Positions 50,171 to 56,558 of a stretch of 64,000 nucleotides of DNA are shown piece by piece. The notes beneath the pieces are model-generated. The model was not told the DNA's origin and ran no database searches. It saw nothing but the letters and a program-made list of their open reading frames with translations. The stretch's first letter is position 1. Each line of letters begins with the position of its first letter. The DNA lies in assembly GCF_000426825.1 (NCBI RefSeq), contig NZ_AUGC01000001.1:248001-312000 (forward strand). Reading direction: 5' to 3'. The translations under genes were made by a program, and so were the position numbers. The DNA comes from Thermonema rossianum DSM 10300. Its GTDB lineage: Bacteria > Bacteroidota > Bacteroidia > Cytophagales > Thermonemataceae.

Positions 50171-52366
50171 ATGCTTTTATCTGAAAGGCTTGTGCGCCGG
50201 GTGGCTTTTCACCTGCGCGAAAAAATGGCTGAATTTCCCGAGTCAGAGCTGGAACGCATTCAAAACGAGCGTACCGAAGGGGACCTGAGCCCCGATGGGT
50301 GGATTCGTGCCATCATCGATCGAGGCGAGGACCTGCACCTTGCCATTGTCGTGCATGGATACAGTAATGATGAGCTCTTGGCTTACTTTTACGAGACAGA
50401 TTCCCCCATTATTTTGTTCCGCTATTTGCCCAATGGTGAGATTGTGCCCGTCATCTTAAAAAAGAAAGGGTCAAAGACTGTTGTAGAAGAGTATTTCGAC
50501 GAAACAAGCGGAGCATGGAAAGAGCGTGAGGTGAAAGACCTGAACGTTTATATACGCTTCGAAGACCCGGTAGATGTGTCGCTCAATGACAAAATCATAG
50601 CTTTGACGGCTTTCCCCATGCCCTATGCTCTTAAGGAGTATGAGGAAAAAAAGGCTTTGACTCCCTTTCAGCGCCTGCTTCTTTTGCTTAAAAGTGAGCG
50701 GCATATTCTACTTTACATTTATGTGTATGCTATCATTTCCGGTCTAATAGCCCTTTCGCTGCCGTTGGGTGTGCAAGCTACTTTCCGGCTGATTTCCAGT
50801 GGAAAAATACTGACTTCGGTGATTGTTGTCATAGCCTTGGTGATTGTGGGCTTGGGGGCATCGGGTGGCTTGCAGCTGATGCAGCTTTGGCTGGTGGAAA
50901 TTCTTCAGCAGCGGGTTTTTGCCAAGGCAGCGTTTGAGTTTGCCTATCGCATCCCCAAAATTTTACCTTCGGTTTTGAAAAAATACTATCCGCCGGAGCT
51001 CATGAACCGCTTTTTCGATGTGGTCATTCTGCAAAAAGAGCTTCCCAAACTGCTGGTTGACTTGTCGGCAGCCGCCTTGCAAGTGGTTTTCGGGCTGTTG
51101 TTGCTTTCGCTTTACCACCCCTTTTTCTTGGGGTTGATATTCTTTACCTTTTTGTTTATTGGCATCTTGCTTTACTATACCTTCGACCGTGGCTTGTACA
51201 CTTCCATCAAGGAGTCAACCTATAAATACAAAATTGCCCATTGGCTGGAAGAGATAGCCCGCACCGTGCGCTCTTTTCGTTTATCTACAAGCAGCCGGCT
51301 GCCCCTCTCTAAGATGGACGAGCTGGTAAACTACTATTTGTATTATCGCAAAGAGCACTTCAAAGTGCTGGTGAATCAATACTTGTTTGTGTTGGTGTTC
51401 AAAATCATCATTGTTGGGGGCTTGTTGATACTGGGGAGCACCCTTGTGGTGGAGCGGCAAATCAGCTTAGGACAGCTGGTTGCTTCCGAAGTGATGATTA
51501 TTTTGGTGGTCAATGCCATTGAAAAGCTGGTGTTGGGCCTGCCCACCGTTTACGATGCGCTGACGGCAGTGGAAAAAATAGCGCAGGTAACCGATTTGCC
51601 CCTGGAAAAGCGCCACGGTGTGCTGGTCGATTTTCATCGTTATCCCGAAGGCTTGGAAATACAAATGGAGGACGTGCGTGCTTCCTACAATTCCAGTAAG
51701 CGTATTTTAAAAGGAATTACCCTCACTGCCTTGCCGGGAGAAGCCATATGCATTGCAGGCCCCGAAGGTGCGGGCAAGCATACACTCATGCGGGTGCTTA
51801 CCGGCTTTGTGGAATACGAAGGCTATATCTCCGTCAATGGCTTTTCACTCAAGGATATTGATGTGGACATGTGGCGCGCAGTAGTGGAAAACAACTTTTC
51901 CGAAGATGAAGTCTTTGCAGGCACCATCCTGGAAAATATTGTCATGGGCAAGCCCAATGTAAAGATGAAAGACGTGTATGAAGCCATAGAAGTTATGGGA
52001 CTGGCCGACGTCATAGGCCGCCTGCCTAAAGGCATTCATACCGAGCTTTTGGCAGATGGGCGCCCGCTCTCTATCAGCGAGCGTCATAAACTCATTTTGG
52101 CACGCTGCATCGTGTCGAAGCCTAAACTGCTGATTATTATAGACCACTTCCAAGAAATGCAAAACTCCGAGAAGAAGCGCATCTTGCAGTGGCTCACCCA
52201 GGAAAGGCACCCATGGACCCTGTTGATGTTGTCGAATGACCCTATTTTCTTGTCTTTGGCAAAACGGGTGATAGTATTGGAAAAAGGACAGGTTGTAGCC
52301 GAAGGAACCTACGAAGAGTTAATGAATGAGCGTCACTTCCGTGCATTTATGACCGAAAACGTATGA
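50171..52366 (+). CDS. ABC transporter protein (type I secretion style) with degenerate ATPase domain
   Basis: A 731-residue protein. Residues ~1-175 are a domain I do not recognise. Residues ~180-480 hold about six membrane helices of the exporter type (ILLYIYVYAIISGLIALSLP, VVFGLLLLSLYHPFFLGLIF, IIVGGLLILGSTLVVERQIS). Residues ~500-731 form the nucleotide-binding domain, but key positions differ: Walker A GPEGAGKH (His537 for Ser/Thr), signature LSISE at 633-637 for LSGGQ, Walker B Asp658 followed by His659 rather than Glu, and Asn689 where the H-loop His is expected. ATP turnover may be absent or unusual. HlyD and TolC-like partners follow in the same operon. Confidence 0.85.
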   Translation: MLLSERLVRRVAFHLREKMAEFPESELERIQNERTEGDLSPDGWIRAIIDRGEDLHLAIVVHGYSNDELLAYFYETDSPIILFRYLPNGEIVPVILKKKGSKTVVEEYFDETSGAWKEREVKDLNVYIRFEDPVDVSLNDKIIALTAFPMPYALKEYEEKKALTPFQRLLLLLKSERHILLYIYVYAIISGLIALSLPLGVQATFRLISSGKILTSVIVVIALVIVGLGASGGLQLMQLWLVEILQQRVFAKAAFEFAYRIPKILPSVLKKYYPPELMNRFFDVVILQKELPKLLVDLSAAALQVVFGLLLLSLYHPFFLGLIFFTFLFIGILLYYTFDRGLYTSIKESTYKYKIAHWLEEIARTVRSFRLSTSSRLPLSKMDELVNYYLYYRKEHFKVLVNQYLFVLVFKIIIVGGLLILGSTLVVERQISLGQLVASEVMIILVVNAIEKLVLGLPTVYDALTAVEKIAQVTDLPLEKRHGVLVDFHRYPEGLEIQMEDVRASYNSSKRILKGITLTALPGEAICIAGPEGAGKHTLMRVLTGFVEYEGYISVNGFSLKDIDVDMWRAVVENNFSEDEVFAGTILENIVMGKPNVKMKDVYEAIEVMGLADVIGRLPKGIHTELLADGRPLSISERHKLILARCIVSKPKLLIIIDHFQEMQNSEKKRILQWLTQERHPWTLLMLSNDPIFLSLAKRVIVLEKGQVVAEGTYEELMNERHFRAFMTENV

Positions 52367-52370
52367 TGTT

Positions 52371-53738
52371 ATGTTGAAGATATCGAAAGAAAGCATTGAA
52401 AATGAATATATTGAACGGCGGGTGTATGCCTTCCGCCTGCTGCAGACCCCGCGATCGGCGCGCAATTTTGCCAAAGTATTGGTGGGGCTGTTTGCTTTTG
52501 GTCTCTTAACCCTTTTCTTACCATGGACGCAGAACATACCCGCCAGCGGAAAGGTAACTGCCTTTTTTCCGAAAGACCGCCCACAAGAAGTGCCGGCAGT
52601 GATTGGGGGGCGTATTCAACAATGGTATGTGCAGGAGGGGCAGTTTGTGAACCGGGGCGATACTTTGCTGCGCATTGGGGAAATCAAGCCGGAGTATTTC
52701 GACCCCGACCTCTTGGAGCGCTTGCGCGAACAAGTGGTAGCCAAAGAAGCGGCCATTGAAGCCACCAAAGCCAATATCGAAGCTTTGAAGCAGCGCTTGC
52801 CCGTATTGCGGCAGGCGGCAAATTTGAGCCTTCAGAAGGCGGAAAACAAAGTGAAGCAGTATCGCCTGAAGGTAAGCAGCGACAGCTCGAACTACCAGGC
52901 ACAACTTGTTAATTTTCAGTTGGCAGAAAACCAATTGCGCCGCTATGATACGCTCTATCAAAAAGGACTTATTTCATTGACCGATTACCAAAAACGCCAA
53001 TTAAAATATCAAGAATCGCAGGCAAAGTTGATAAAAGCCGAAAACGACTACTTAGGCTCGCAACAAGAATATCTGAACGCTTTGATTGAGCTTAGCTCTA
53101 TCCGGGCAGAGTACCGGGAAAAAATATTGAAAGCCGAAGCAGAGCTGCGCAATTACGAATCCTACCTTGCCAATGCTCAGCTGGAATTGGCTGCCTACAG
53201 AAACAAATATGCCAGCACGGTCATACGGAATGAAAATTACTACATTTTAGCTCCGCAGTCCGGTTATGTGGTCAAGGCAATGAGCCAAGGGATTGGCGAA
53301 ATCGTAAAGGAGGGCGAGCCCGTGGTGCAAATCCAACCGGCACGCCCGCAAAAAGCAGTGGAGTTGTATGTGAAAGCCATGGACGTGCCTTTGATTACCC
53401 CCGGGCGTGAGGTGCGTATCGAATTTGCCGGATGGCCTGCTTTCCAATTTTCGGGATGGCCCAGTGTGAGTGTAGGTACCTTTGCCGGCAGGGTGAAGGT
53501 CATCGACTATGTAAGCCAGCCTGATGGTACTTATCGTATCTTGGCTTTGCCCGATGCTACCAACGACCCCGAATGGCCCGAGCAACTGCGCATCGGCTCG
53601 GCTGTGCGGGCATTCATCCTGCTCGATGATGTGCCCGTGTGGTATGAAATCTGGCGACAGCTGAACGGTTTCCCGCCCAGCTTAAAAGAAGCGCCCGATG
53701 AAAAAGGTGATAAAGACAAAGGTGCAAAAAAGAAATAA
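52371..53738 (+). CDS. HlyD-family membrane-fusion protein
   Basis: A 455-residue periplasmic adaptor. One membrane helix near the N terminus (FAKVLVGLFAFGLLTLFLPW), a lipoyl-like half (IGGRIQQWYVQEGQFVNRGD, residues ~75-100), a long coiled-coil hairpin (~110-290), the returning lipoyl half (ILAPQSGYVVKAMSQGIGEI), and a beta-barrel domain. It bridges an inner-membrane transporter and an outer-membrane channel; the ABC gene 4 bases upstream and the TolC-like gene (41-base overlap) complete the set. Substrate unknown. Confidence 0.9.
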   Translation: MLKISKESIENEYIERRVYAFRLLQTPRSARNFAKVLVGLFAFGLLTLFLPWTQNIPASGKVTAFFPKDRPQEVPAVIGGRIQQWYVQEGQFVNRGDTLLRIGEIKPEYFDPDLLERLREQVVAKEAAIEATKANIEALKQRLPVLRQAANLSLQKAENKVKQYRLKVSSDSSNYQAQLVNFQLAENQLRRYDTLYQKGLISLTDYQKRQLKYQESQAKLIKAENDYLGSQQEYLNALIELSSIRAEYREKILKAEAELRNYESYLANAQLELAAYRNKYASTVIRNENYYILAPQSGYVVKAMSQGIGEIVKEGEPVVQIQPARPQKAVELYVKAMDVPLITPGREVRIEFAGWPAFQFSGWPSVSVGTFAGRVKVIDYVSQPDGTYRILALPDATNDPEWPEQLRIGSAVRAFILLDDVPVWYEIWRQLNGFPPSLKEAPDEKGDKDKGAKKK

Positions 53739-55170
53739 GCCGGTGATTCGAAAACAACAATTTCTCTTTTGGATATTAAAGTTTTTGGCAGTTACTGCCT
53801 ATGCGCAAGAAGACACCACCAAACGCCTGAGCTTGCAGGAGGTGTTGCAGTGGGTGGCTGCCTACCACCCTGTGATGAAACAGGCCGACCTCTACTTGGA
53901 GCAGGGGCGCTTTGCCTTGCGCCAGGCACGTGGCAACTTCGATCCCCAACTGAAAGGTACATGGGACGAGAAAAATTTTAAAACCAAACAATACTATCAG
54001 TATATCAATACGTATGTGTCGGTGCCTTTATGGATTGGCGAGCTGAAAGCCGGCTATGAGCGTAACCAAGGTTTGTATATCAACCCGGATCGCACAGTGC
54101 CCGAAGAAGGGCTATGGTATGCCGGCATAAAGGTGCCTTTGGGCTATGGTTTGTTTATCGATGAACGGCGCAATGCCCTGCGCCAAGCACAGCTGATGCA
54201 AGAAATGGCCGCTGCCGAGCGGCTGAAGACCATCAACAAGCTGTATTATCAAGTCGTGAAAGACTACTGGAACTGGTACTTTGCCTACCGCAAAAAGGAG
54301 GCGCTTCAGCGTGCCTATGACTTGGTAAATGCCCGTTATGAGTTTACCCTCGAAAAGGTGAAGATGGGCGAAGAGGCGCCTATCGATTCCCTGGAGGCCG
54401 GCATCAACCGTCAGGACCGCCAGATTATGTTGTTGGAAGCCGAGGCCGAGCTTACACAAGCACGCTTGGCGTTGTCGGCGCACTTGTGGACCGAAGACGG
54501 CACGCCCGTAGAGCTAAATCCGGAAGTGGCACCCGACGAACCCAAGCAGGCTACCGAGCAGCCTTTTCAAGAACGCTATCCACTCGAAACGCTCAAACAG
54601 CAGTTGGAAGCACAACATCCCGAATTGCAAAAGTTACGCTTGAAATACCAAAGCTTAGAGTTTGAGCGCCGTCTGTATGCCGAAAAGATGAAACCCAAGC
54701 TCAACTTAAACTATAATTTTCTTTCGGCACAACCGGTAAAGAGTGGCGAGTGGAACGGCACTTATTTGCAGAACAACTACAAATTTGGCATTGAATTGGC
54801 TTTTCCGCTCTTCATGCGTGAGGCCGGTGGCAAGCGCCAGCAGGTAAAAGTGAAACAGTTGCAAAACGAGCAAGAACAGCTTTATTTAGTGCGCACGCTG
54901 TATAATGATCTGGAGGCCGCTTACCGTACACTCTTGCTTACGGAGCAAAACTTGCGCAATCTTTTAAGCATGGTGCAGAACTACCGCGCTTTGCGTGATG
55001 GAGAGTATGCCAAGTTTATAGCCGGTGAGAGTTACGTTTTTTTGGTAAACAAACGTGAGGAGAAGCTGCTTGATGCAGAAATCAAGCTGGCGAAGACACA
55101 AGCAGCCTACGAAAAGCTCAAGGTAGAAGTGCTTTGGCTGAGTGGATTGCCCCTGTGGAGCTTGCCCTAA
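53698..55170 (+). CDS. TolC-family outer-membrane channel protein
   Basis: A 490-residue protein. It begins within the last 41 bases of the HlyD gene in another frame; an N-terminal basic-then-hydrophobic stretch (FLFWILKFLAVTAYAQ) is a signal peptide. Two helical repeats of the outer-membrane efflux family are visible: LEQGRFALRQARGNFDPQLK and later LQNEQEQLYLVRTLYNDLEA, with strand-forming regions between. It would form the trimeric exit duct for the ABC-HlyD complex. Length is normal. Confidence 0.9.
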   Translation: MKKVIKTKVQKRNKPVIRKQQFLFWILKFLAVTAYAQEDTTKRLSLQEVLQWVAAYHPVMKQADLYLEQGRFALRQARGNFDPQLKGTWDEKNFKTKQYYQYINTYVSVPLWIGELKAGYERNQGLYINPDRTVPEEGLWYAGIKVPLGYGLFIDERRNALRQAQLMQEMAAAERLKTINKLYYQVVKDYWNWYFAYRKKEALQRAYDLVNARYEFTLEKVKMGEEAPIDSLEAGINRQDRQIMLLEAEAELTQARLALSAHLWTEDGTPVELNPEVAPDEPKQATEQPFQERYPLETLKQQLEAQHPELQKLRLKYQSLEFERRLYAEKMKPKLNLNYNFLSAQPVKSGEWNGTYLQNNYKFGIELAFPLFMREAGGKRQQVKVKQLQNEQEQLYLVRTLYNDLEAAYRTLLLTEQNLRNLLSMVQNYRALRDGEYAKFIAGESYVFLVNKREEKLLDAEIKLAKTQAAYEKLKVEVLWLSGLPLWSLP

Positions 55171-55259
55171 GCTTACGTAGCGCCCGGGCTTGTATGGCTG
55201 CATACTAAGCACATGTGCTTATGCGTTATCTTTTTAGCCAAAGAATTCAAATAAAAACT

Positions 55260-56558
55260 ATGCAATTAAGAAAGAAGGTCTTGGGAGCGCTGCTATTTAT
55301 TGTGGGGATAGGCGTTTTCTGTCAGCTTAGTGCGCAATCCTTGCCGCGTCGTCCCTTTATAGGTTTGGATTTACGCTGGAATACCGAGGAAGAGGTGCTT
55401 GAAGTGGCAAGAGTACACGCCGGAAGTGCTGCCGAAAAAGCCGGTATTTTGCCCGGTGACCGTCTATTGCGTCTCGATGACACCCCTTTGAAAAGCTATA
55501 CCCAGCTACTTGAATTGGTAAGGCGTAATTACAAAGTGGGCGACAAGGTTACATTAAGCATCCGGCGTGGCGGGCAGTTGTTAAGCTACCGCCTGCGGCT
55601 GGGGAAGTATCCTACCGAACAAGCCCCCGATTTTGCCATAGACTATCGCGAAATAAAAACCCCGCAAGGACACTTGCGTTGCATCGTTACGCGCCCCCCA
55701 AATAGCCAAGCGGTGCCGGCCGTGCTTTTCATACAAGGCATTGCCTGCCAAAGTATCGATACCCCCTTCGACACGCAGCGCCCCTATACACAACTGCTTT
55801 ATGAACTGACACGCCAAGGCGTGGCCACCATACGCGTAGAAAAATTTGGTATTGGCGACAGCGAAGGCCCCGACTGCATAGAAGTAGATTTTGAAACCGA
55901 ACGCCAAGCTTTTTTGCAAGCCCTGCGGGCAGTCAAGCAATACGACTTCGTGGACAGCACACAGGTTTTTTTGCTGGGGCATAGTGTGGGGGGCATTCTG
56001 GCAGTACAAATAGCCAACCATGAACCGGTCAAAGGCATCATTGTGTATGGAACGGTAGGGCGTCGCTGGACAGACTACCTGCTGGAATCGCGCCGCCGTC
56101 TGTTTATGATGAAAGGCAAGCCTGAAGCCGAAATCGACGATTACCTGAATGGTATCAACCGTTGCAATGTGGAGTACTTCGTGCTGCATCGCCCTAAGAG
56201 CGAAGTGGCCAATGCCAATCCCGCTTATGAGCGTTATTTAAGGCTGTTCGACATACGCAGCGACCAATATTGGTTTCAGCTGCAGGAGGTCAATGTGCCG
56301 GCAGAGTGGAGCCGTTACGATGGCTTTGTGCTTAGCTTGTGGGGCGAGTTCGATGTGGCTTCGCTTGAAGAAGACCACCAAATGATAGCCCATATCGTGA
56401 ATAAACGGCAGCCCGAACGGGCAGTGTATGTGCGTGTGCCCCAAGCCGACCACGGCATGCGCTGGACTACTTCATACCGCGAGGTGGTGGCGCCCTATAA
56501 TCCTGTTATTGGGCATATTGTGAATCAGTGGATACAAGCCGTCTGTCAAGCACCATGA
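55260..56558 (+). CDS. PDZ-domain alpha/beta hydrolase
   Basis: A 432-residue exported protein. ATG 55260 (MQLRKKVLGALLFIVG) gives a signal peptide ending near LSAQS. Residues ~35-120 are a PDZ domain (VARVHAGSAAEKAGILPGDR, TLSIRRGGQLLSYRLRLGKY). Residues ~150-430 are an alpha/beta hydrolase with nucleophile elbow GHSVGG, oxyanion-type FIQGIACQSID and a late His (QADHGMRW). PDZ fused to a serine hydrolase is rare to see; the ligand of PDZ may guide it to a protein C terminus. It lies 89 bases after the TolC-like gene and may belong to that operon; its link to secretion is an inference. Confidence 0.83.
   Translation: MQLRKKVLGALLFIVGIGVFCQLSAQSLPRRPFIGLDLRWNTEEEVLEVARVHAGSAAEKAGILPGDRLLRLDDTPLKSYTQLLELVRRNYKVGDKVTLSIRRGGQLLSYRLRLGKYPTEQAPDFAIDYREIKTPQGHLRCIVTRPPNSQAVPAVLFIQGIACQSIDTPFDTQRPYTQLLYELTRQGVATIRVEKFGIGDSEGPDCIEVDFETERQAFLQALRAVKQYDFVDSTQVFLLGHSVGGILAVQIANHEPVKGIIVYGTVGRRWTDYLLESRRRLFMMKGKPEAEIDDYLNGINRCNVEYFVLHRPKSEVANANPAYERYLRLFDIRSDQYWFQLQEVNVPAEWSRYDGFVLSLWGEFDVASLEEDHQMIAHIVNKRQPERAVYVRVPQADHGMRWTTSYREVVAPYNPVIGHIVNQWIQAVCQAP

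What the first reader, a model, noticed from the sequence alone, without database searches (positions are those of the whole stretch)
50171..52366. Exporter-type ABC protein with a broken nucleotide-binding domain
All the usual NBD signatures are altered: Walker A ends in Lys536-His537 rather than Lys-Ser/Thr, LSGGQ reads LSISE (633-637), the catalytic Glu after Walker B is His659, and the H-loop His is Asn689. The frame is intact and the operon partners (HlyD, TolC) look normal, so this is not simple decay. The protein may work as a non-hydrolysing scaffold, use another energy source, or pair with a second active NBD.
Basis: partly seen in the sequence, partly recalled or inferred. Interest (0 to 1): 0.72.

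Follow-up and report, generated by a model that had tools for sequence, protein, structure and literature searches.

The report
Export pump that lost its motor
A bacterial export machine built like an ATP-driven pump has, across a large family of relatives, a motor without its catalytic parts, and in one branch the motor is missing altogether while the rest of the machine is kept, which suggests that it works in some way not yet described for such machines.

Summary
The 731-aa ABC protein at 50171-52366 keeps the exporter fold but has lost the Walker A Ser/Thr, Q-loop Gln, LSGGQ, Walker B Asp (Ile657), catalytic Glu (Asp658, not His659) and H-loop His. This is not local decay. Of 139 family members with an NBD that were examined, none keeps five scored catalytic residues together, while 13 of 16 in a distant sister group do. 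The NBD is under purifying selection, yet less conserved than the membrane domain. One clade has no NBD at all: 37 loci in 36 genomes encode only the membrane domain (329-374 aa), all beside HlyD and TolC genes. In 21 of those genomes the lost NBD was not found elsewhere. In 18 genomes tested, the family HlyD occurs exactly where the protein does. Best explanation: the inner-membrane part of a tripartite export system that does not hydrolyse ATP. My preferred power source is an ion gradient acting through the membrane domain (conserved basic residue in TM5, acidic ones in TM6), as reported for engineered NBD-less LmrA; this is inferred, not shown. Eight full-text searches, one aimed at LmrA, found no description of this family.

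The parts
50171..52366 (+). ABC-exporter-like protein with catalytically degenerate NBD (731 aa)
50171..50644 (+). N-terminal domain, residues 1-158; no Pfam family above cut-off; weak resemblance to papain-like/C39-type folds
   Evidence: inconclusive
50651..51610 (+). Transmembrane domain, residues 161-480: the most conserved part of the family and the only part kept in the NBD-less clade
51266..51283 (+). Coupling helix 2 (residues 366-371 in the model); its conserved residues and flank are lost in NBD-less relatives
51401..51403 (+). Lys411, always Lys or Arg in the sets examined, inside hydrophobic TM5
51488..51490 (+). Glu440 in TM6, acidic in all but one sister-group protein (Gln)
   Evidence: model confidence is low at 433-440
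51521..51523 (+). Glu451 in TM6, always Glu or Asp in the degenerate and NBD-less sets
51656..52330 (+). Degenerate NBD, residues 496-720, fold retained in the model
51758..51784 (+). Walker A, GPEGAGKHT (His537 for Ser/Thr)
51899..51901 (+). Q-loop position, Ser577 for Gln
52067..52081 (+). Signature motif, LSISE for LSGGQ (633-637)
52127..52147 (+). Walker B, LLIIIDH (653-659): Asp to Ile657, catalytic Glu to Asp658
52235..52237 (+). H-loop, Asn689 for His
52371..53738 (+). HlyD-type periplasmic adaptor (455 aa), 4 bp after the ABC stop
53698..55170 (+). TolC-type outer-membrane factor (490 aa), overlapping the HlyD gene

Best explanation
The protein is the inner-membrane subunit of a tripartite (ABC-like protein, HlyD, TolC) export system of Bacteroidota that no longer hydrolyses ATP. 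Shown by sequence: catalytic residues lost in the relatives examined, NBD kept under purifying selection, NBD absent (apparently deleted once) in a nested clade, HlyD and TolC kept. Inferred: its membrane domain still forms the dimeric gate of a conduit docked to HlyD and TolC; the pseudo-NBD is a structural or nucleotide-sensing part that can be dispensed with. Inferred with less certainty (about 0.4 on its own): export is driven by an ion gradient through the membrane domain, using the basic residue of TM5 and the acidic residues of TM6, as reported for the engineered NBD-less LmrA. The confidence given is for the claim that the system works without ATP hydrolysis by this protein; the scaffold rival below is a sub-case of it.
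For: Catalytic residues: of 139 family members with an NBD (window protein included, copies over 98% identical removed from 133 of them, a gap counted as absent), Walker B Asp 17, catalytic Glu 31, H-loop His 7, Q-loop Gln 4, signature Gly 3; only L269 has both Asp and Glu, and none has Lys, Ser/Thr, Asp, Glu and His together; the sister group has all five in 13 of 16. Constraint reversed: mean pairwise identity is 53% in the membrane domain and 32% in the NBD (133 members), against 21% and 47% for five ordinary exporters of the same genome. NBD dN/dS 0.019-0.103 in the 29 of 31 close pairs that gave a value. NBD-less forms: 37 loci in 36 genomes, 329-374 aa, HlyD 37 of 37 and TolC 37 of 37 adjacent, 28 overlapping the HlyD start by mechanical start choice; 29 of them in the tree form one clade, SH-aLRT 100, nested inside the degenerate family. 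No relocated NBD in 21 NBD-less genomes: among the listed matches (list cut by the tool, best first) at most 31% identity, in frames of 580 aa or more, while two control genomes gave 100% and 55%. Phylogenetic profile: family HlyD in 13 of 13 genomes with the protein, eight of which have the two genes apart, and in 0 of 5 without. Membrane charges: position 440 Glu/Asp 139 of 139, 451 Glu 139 of 139, 411 Lys/Arg 139 of 139; NBD-less 37 of 37 at all three (Asp at 451 in 11); of five ordinary exporters none is acidic at 440 or basic at 411. Precedent: LmrA without its NBD is reported as a secondary-active transporter, with Glu314 in TM6 needed for pH-gradient dependence (PMC2704374, passages).
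Against: No experiment. The TM5/TM6 charges are also present in the sister group that keeps its catalytic residues, so they did not arise with the loss of the motor and may serve HlyD docking or gating. Lys536 is kept in 113 of 139 and Ser/Thr in 97, so many members may still bind ATP. Coupling helix 1 keeps all 8 conserved columns in NBD-less forms, which could mean that something still docks there; 6 of 37 NBD-less loci have an ABC gene 3-6 kb downstream, three of them ordinary exporters. HlyD is not always adjacent (98 of 103, and apart in G028, G043 and G057 too). The model is poor at 433-440, around Glu440. Whether Glu440 or Glu451 corresponds to LmrA Glu314 was not tested.
Confidence: 0.74

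Rival explanations
1. Scaffold or gated passive conduit (a sub-case of 'no ATP hydrolysis'): the membrane domain only anchors and gates the HlyD-TolC duct and no energy is spent at the inner membrane.
For: NBD dispensable; HlyD always found with it in the genomes tested; columns that differ from ordinary exporters, such as Gln288-Lys289, are kept in NBD-less forms.
Against: Conserved charged residues inside TM5 and TM6 are costly for a mere anchor; a TetR-type regulator near many loci (74 of 103) fits an induced efflux pump better.
Confidence: 0.3
2. The protein pairs in trans with an active half-exporter or borrows an NBD encoded elsewhere.
For: Heterodimeric exporters with one impaired site are well known (PMC7756269 passages; PMC12038006 abstract), with Asp at the catalytic position in TmrB (PMC8277102 passage), as in 74 of 133 here; five ordinary exporters exist in the genome; coupling helix 1 is kept in NBD-less forms; three NBD-less loci (L245, L246, L258) have an exporter-type ABC gene 5-6 kb downstream on the same strand, and three (L142, L237, L238) a 282-aa ABC gene 3-5 kb downstream.
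Against: No ABC gene seen near the other 31 of 37 NBD-less loci, and only in 2 of 112 degenerate loci looked at, 3-5 kb away (five exporter queries only, limited flanks); nearest exporter of the window's genome 25% identical and unlinked; no relocated family NBD found; coupling helix 2 with its flank lost 4 of 5 conserved positions in NBD-less forms, against 22 of 114 overall, hypergeometric p 0.005, region looked at before the test.
Confidence: 0.12
3. Decaying gene: the protein is on the way to becoming a pseudogene and has no present function.
For: Stepwise loss of motifs, then of the domain; three copies with split frames were seen (L126, L265, L266).
Against: dN/dS far below 1 in both domains; unbroken frames in the matches listed for the order (list cut by the tool); HlyD tracks it.
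Confidence: 0.03
4. Residual or unconventional ATP hydrolysis: Asp658 acts as a weak catalytic base and the transporter is slow but ATP-driven.
For: Asp or Glu at the catalytic position in 103 of 133 and Walker A Lys in 113 of 139.
Against: Walker B Asp, signature Gly, H-loop His and Q-loop Gln are nearly always lost, one subgroup lost Walker A as well, and a nested clade has no NBD.
Confidence: 0.08

Closest known systems
Type I secretion ABC proteins of the HlyB / LssB / PCAT1 kind with HlyD and TolC
   Same: Exporter fold over residues 160-731 (VIA-align Z about 30); Foldseek rows led by PCAT1, with the HlyB/D complex at rank 6; best NCBIfam model LssB, 166 bits against a cut-off of 693; HlyD and TolC genes adjacent.
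   Different: Catalytic motifs of the NBD lost in the relatives examined; membrane domain more conserved than NBD; an NBD-less clade; no secreted substrate looked for.
Heterodimeric exporters with one degenerate nucleotide site (TM287/288, TmrAB and others)
   Same: Degenerate NBD motifs, often with Asp for the catalytic Glu here (74 of 133), as in TmrB (PMC8277102 passage).
   Different: There one site is intact (PMC12038006 abstract); here no intact partner was found beside it and the NBD can be absent.
LmrA-MD, the engineered NBD-less form of Lactococcus LmrA
   Same: Exporter membrane domain alone, acidic residue in TM6 (PMC2704374 passages).
   Different: LmrA-MD was made in the laboratory from an ATP-driven parent; the NBD-less forms here are natural and stand with HlyD and TolC. 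Ion coupling is untested here.
RND- or MFS-driven tripartite pumps (AcrAB-TolC, EmrAB-TolC; recalled)
   Same: An adaptor and TolC with an inner-membrane part that does not hydrolyse ATP.
   Different: The inner-membrane part here has the ABC exporter fold.

Membership tests
ABC exporter (type IV fold) | Exporter membrane fold plus NBD fold | tested here: met
   Model pLDDT 76 overall, NBD block means 78-93, weak at 433-440; Z about 30 to MsbA, PCAT1, TmrAB; NBD alone 236 residues at 1.6 A to ComA
ABC exporter (type IV fold) | Walker A Lys and Ser/Thr | tested here: not met
   Lys536 kept, Ser/Thr is His537; family Lys 113, Ser/Thr 97 of 139
ABC exporter (type IV fold) | LSGGQ signature, Q-loop Gln | tested here: not met
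   LSISE, Ser577; family Gly636 3, Gln577 4 of 139
ABC exporter (type IV fold) | Walker B Asp, catalytic Glu, H-loop His | tested here: not met
   Ile657, Asp658, Asn689; family 17, 31 and 7 of 139
ABC exporter (type IV fold) | ATP hydrolysis coupled to transport | not testable with these tools
   needs purified protein
Type I secretion system (HlyB-HlyD-TolC) | HlyD-type adaptor gene | tested here: met
   52371-53738; Pfam HlyD_3 above, TIGR01843 below its cut-off; adjacent in 98 of 103 degenerate loci
Type I secretion system (HlyB-HlyD-TolC) | TolC-type outer-membrane gene | tested here: met
   53698-55170; Pfam OEP; 97 of 103 loci
Type I secretion system (HlyB-HlyD-TolC) | ATPase-competent ABC subunit | tested here: not met
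   catalytic residues lost; activity itself not testable
Type I secretion system (HlyB-HlyD-TolC) | C39 or C39-like N-terminal domain | tested here: inconclusive
   1 of 17 N-termini hits Peptidase_C39 at E 0.024; no relevant match in solved structures by profile; fold search E 0.2 or worse, ComA peptidase at rank 18
Type I secretion system (HlyB-HlyD-TolC) | Cognate secreted protein | not tested
   no search for substrates was made
Degenerate-site heterodimeric exporter | Intact partner half encoded beside it | tested here: not met
   none at the window's locus; nearest exporter in the genome 25% identical and unlinked
Secondary-active exporter membrane domain (LmrA-MD-like) | Stable form without NBD | tested here: met
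   37 loci in 36 genomes in a nested clade; the window protein itself keeps its pseudo-NBD
Secondary-active exporter membrane domain (LmrA-MD-like) | Acidic residue in TM6 | tested here: met
   Glu440, Glu451; correspondence to LmrA Glu314 not tested
Secondary-active exporter membrane domain (LmrA-MD-like) | Ion-coupled transport | not testable with these tools
   needs proteoliposomes or whole-cell assay

The most novel reading that the evidence does not exclude
An ABC exporter has evolved, in nature, into a transporter of another energy class: its ATPase was first disabled in a large part of a phylum and then deleted in one clade, leaving a membrane domain that runs a HlyD-TolC export machine on an ion gradient. 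The series from near-intact NBD, through pseudo-NBD, to no NBD survives in living species.
Probability: 0.35. Interest if true: 0.9.

Novelty: new variant of a known kind. Interest (0 to 1): 0.74.

Why it matters
ABC transporters are defined by their ATP motor. A widespread family (membrane-domain relatives in 271 of 341 genomes sampled from one order; the NBD was inspected only in the loci fetched) that has lost the motor's catalytic parts but kept the pump, with intermediate stages extant, gives a natural experiment on a disputed point: whether the membrane domain of an ABC exporter can transport on its own, as reported for LmrA. It also suggests (inference) that genes likely to be annotated as ABC ATPases here are not ATPases, and that many Bacteroidota have a tripartite export system of unknown substrate and energy source.

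Tried and rejected
Local decay or sequencing error: rejected; the frame and the substitutions are shared by the 93%-identical protein of the nearest genome (L039) and the degenerate state is shared by the relatives examined.

NBD lost by frameshift in the NBD-less forms: rejected; the space between the stop and the HlyD start is -41 to +118 bp, so no NBD fits (starts were chosen mechanically).

Relocated NBD: searched with the NBD of a near NBD-bearing relative in 21 NBD-less genomes plus two controls, not found (the match list was cut by the tool, best first). An unrelated NBD in trans is not excluded; 6 of 37 NBD-less loci have an ABC gene 3-6 kb downstream. ABC-like hits right beside four sister-group loci turned out, in the two tested, to be UvrA.

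Ion-coupling residues as an innovation that came with loss of the NBD: not supported; the sister group has them too.

N-terminal domain as a C39-like domain: the alignment suggested it to me, but profile search against solved structures, Pfam and the fold of the domain alone (pLDDT 63) leave it open.

Several independent losses of the NBD: my first guess from the scattered families; the tree gives one clade, so one loss followed by descent and probably some transfer. It is a quick tree with SH-aLRT support only, rooted on the sister group by assumption.

Literature: eight full-text searches (one search was aimed at LmrA) listed no paper on degenerate or NBD-less exporters of this family. Only open-licence PubMed Central papers are held; I saw listings with starts of abstracts, and passages of PMC2704374, PMC8277102, PMC11026475 (nothing useful) and PMC7756269.

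Rows dropped before counts: 32 near-copies over 98% identical (species of one genus remain, so counts are not independent events); 2 frame-broken loci (L265, L266), while a third (L126) stayed in; L229, a 1-kb stretch without the gene fetched by mistake, 9 degenerate and 2 sister loci with too little flank; the tree used 110 rows thinned by identity (29 of 37 NBD-less, 67 degenerate, 14 sister). The 103 loci include some genomes twice. In one search two of the 31 pairs are sister-group pairs and two rows are the same pair of genomes. The NBD-less loci were picked by short open frame, and the match list was cut by the tool, so no overall rate of NBD loss is given.

Full report
What was checked. 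The ORF at 50171-52366 (+) is open and encodes 731 aa, followed after 4 bp by a HlyD-type adaptor (52371-53738) and an overlapping TolC-type gene (53698-55170). The NBD is recognised by Pfam ABC_tran with 58.7 bits. Against five ordinary exporters of the same genome the catalytic motifs are: Walker A GPEGAGKHT, Q-loop Ser577, signature LSISE, Walker B LLIIIDH, H-loop Asn689.

It is a family trait. Relatives were found in 46 of 59 relative genomes, as 73 loci in a scan of genome contigs (four are distant Clostridia NBD matches, the rest are Bacteroidota or binned genomes whose species labels look wrong), and, with a profile of the membrane domain, in 62 of 247 genomes of the phylum (17 of these the sister group below) and 271 of 341 of the order. 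In a set of 139 members with an NBD (window protein included, near-copies removed), the canonical residue is present as follows: Walker A Lys 113, Ser/Thr 97, Q-loop Gln 4, signature Ser 63, signature Gly 3, Walker B Asp 17, catalytic Glu 31, H-loop His 7. Only one (L269) has Walker B Asp and Glu together, and none has Lys, Ser/Thr, Asp, Glu and His together. The decay differs by lineage: Flavobacterium species keep a good Walker A but lost the other motifs, while a Crocinitomicaceae-rich group lost Walker A too.

There is a sister group that still looks like an ATPase. Seventeen loci from other groups of the phylum (L191-L207; 16 after removal of a near-copy) keep Walker A Lys and Ser/Thr and Walker B Asp (16 of 16), Glu (14) and H-loop His (13), though none has the Q-loop Gln and the signature is variable. 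On a tree of membrane-domain columns they form one side of a branch with support 100. The simplest reading is one origin of the degenerate state after the split from this group; the root is an assumption.

The pseudo-NBD is maintained. In the 29 of 31 close pairs that gave a value, NBD dN/dS is 0.019-0.103, against 0.004-0.071 for the membrane domain, and the NBD is the faster of the two in 27 of those 29; the window's own pair is saturated at synonymous sites for the NBD. Constraint is shifted: mean pairwise identity in the family is 53% for the membrane domain and 32% for the NBD (8778 pairs), 49% and 42% in the sister group, and 21% and 47% among the five ordinary exporters, which are paralogues of different families and so only a rough yardstick. 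A model of the protein has a well-predicted NBD (block means 78-93) but weak stretches elsewhere, also at 433-440; it matches MsbA, PCAT1 and TmrAB over residues 160-731 with Z about 30.

A clade without the NBD. Membrane-domain matches in short frames led to 37 loci in 36 genomes whose whole gene is 329-374 aa and ends where the NBD would begin. HlyD follows in 37 of 37, TolC in 37 of 37; in 28 the HlyD frame overlaps the end of the gene, and in the other 9 the gap is 34-118 bp, so no NBD is hidden there. On the tree the 29 such rows used form one clade, support 100, whose nearest rows are two NBD-bearing, degenerate proteins (L056, L270; support 99). The NBD of L270 searched in 21 NBD-less genomes finds, among the listed matches, nothing better than 31% identity, in frames of ordinary exporter size or longer, while the two control genomes give 100% and 55%. 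At least two genomes carry both an NBD-less and a degenerate copy (G315, G375). Six of the 37 loci have some ABC gene 3-6 kb downstream: a 282-aa ABC ATPase in three, an exporter-type gene in three.

The machine stays together. HlyD is adjacent in 98 of 103 degenerate loci, 37 of 37 NBD-less and 14 of 15 sister loci; TolC in 97, 37 and 14. Where the genes are apart, HlyD is elsewhere in the genome: a family HlyD was found in 13 of 13 genomes that have the protein, eight of them with the genes apart (including G028, G043 and G057, which are not among the 103), and in 0 of 5 that lack it. A gene similar to one TetR-type query (PF00440 in the two tested) lies within 700 bp in 74 of 103 degenerate and 15 of 37 NBD-less loci, and in none of 15 sister loci; none was labelled at the window's locus.

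What the membrane domain keeps. In the 139 degenerate and 37 NBD-less proteins, position 440 is always Glu or Asp, 451 always Glu or Asp, 411 always Lys or Arg; in P0001 they lie in hydrophobic segments (TM5, TM6). In the five ordinary exporters none is acidic at 440 or basic at 411. The sister group is acidic at 440 in 15 of 16, at 451 in 15 of 16, and basic at 411 in 16 of 16, so these residues predate the loss of the motor. NBD-less proteins keep the first coupling region (0 of 8 conserved columns lost) but lose 4 of 5 conserved positions of the second coupling helix and its flank, where exporters dock on the NBD (recalled), against 22 of 114 overall (p 0.005; the region was looked at before the test). 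This speaks against an NBD in trans, but not strongly.

How it most likely works. Shown: loss of catalytic residues, purifying selection, absence of the domain in a nested clade, retention of HlyD and TolC. Inferred: a dimeric membrane domain under a HlyD-TolC duct that does not need ATP hydrolysis of its own. For the power source I prefer an ion gradient (about 0.4), because charged residues are conserved inside the membrane and because LmrA lacking its NBD is reported as a secondary-active, proton-coupled transporter that needs Glu314 in TM6 for pH-gradient dependence (PMC2704374, passages). A gated passive duct or scaffold is the main rival (0.3).

Comparison with the known. It resembles type I secretion (HlyB/HlyD/TolC) in fold and operon, but fails the test of an ATPase-competent ABC subunit, so I do not file it as a member. 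It resembles degenerate-site heterodimers in motif loss, but no intact partner was found. It works, on my reading, like LmrA-MD, but is natural and tripartite; ion coupling is not shown. The N-terminal 158 residues may be a C39-like domain; the tests were inconclusive. Eight full-text searches listed no account of the family.

Noticed in passing
L265 (G397), L266 (G413), L126: Copies of the ABC-like gene with the reading frame split in two beside HlyD and TolC: breakage in single genomes, or assembly errors.
   Followed up: partly
L068, L069, L070, L158, L228; genomes G028, G043, G057: In Raineya and some others the ABC-like gene stands alone, with its HlyD elsewhere in the genome.
   Followed up: partly
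L269 (G538): The only degenerate-group member with Walker B Asp and Glu both present; its Walker A, signature and H-loop are altered.
   Followed up: no
L208 (G135, another family of the class): An NBD-less copy clustering with copies from the window's order, which suggests horizontal transfer of the operon.
   Followed up: partly
L245, L246, L258: An ordinary exporter-type ABC gene lies 5-6 kb downstream of the NBD-less operon on the same strand in these three genomes; chance synteny or a partner.
   Followed up: partly
window 55215-56558: PDZ plus alpha/beta-hydrolase protein directly downstream of TolC, also so placed in the nearest genome (L150) but not labelled in the other neighbourhoods printed.
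   Followed up: no
L191-L207: The sister group keeps most catalytic residues yet none of 16 has the Q-loop Gln, and its signature motif is variable: possibly an unusual ATPase in its own right.
   Followed up: no
L073, L121: Contigs of binned genomes labelled Bifidobacterium breve and Polynucleobacter carry this Bacteroidota operon; the labels look wrong.
   Followed up: no
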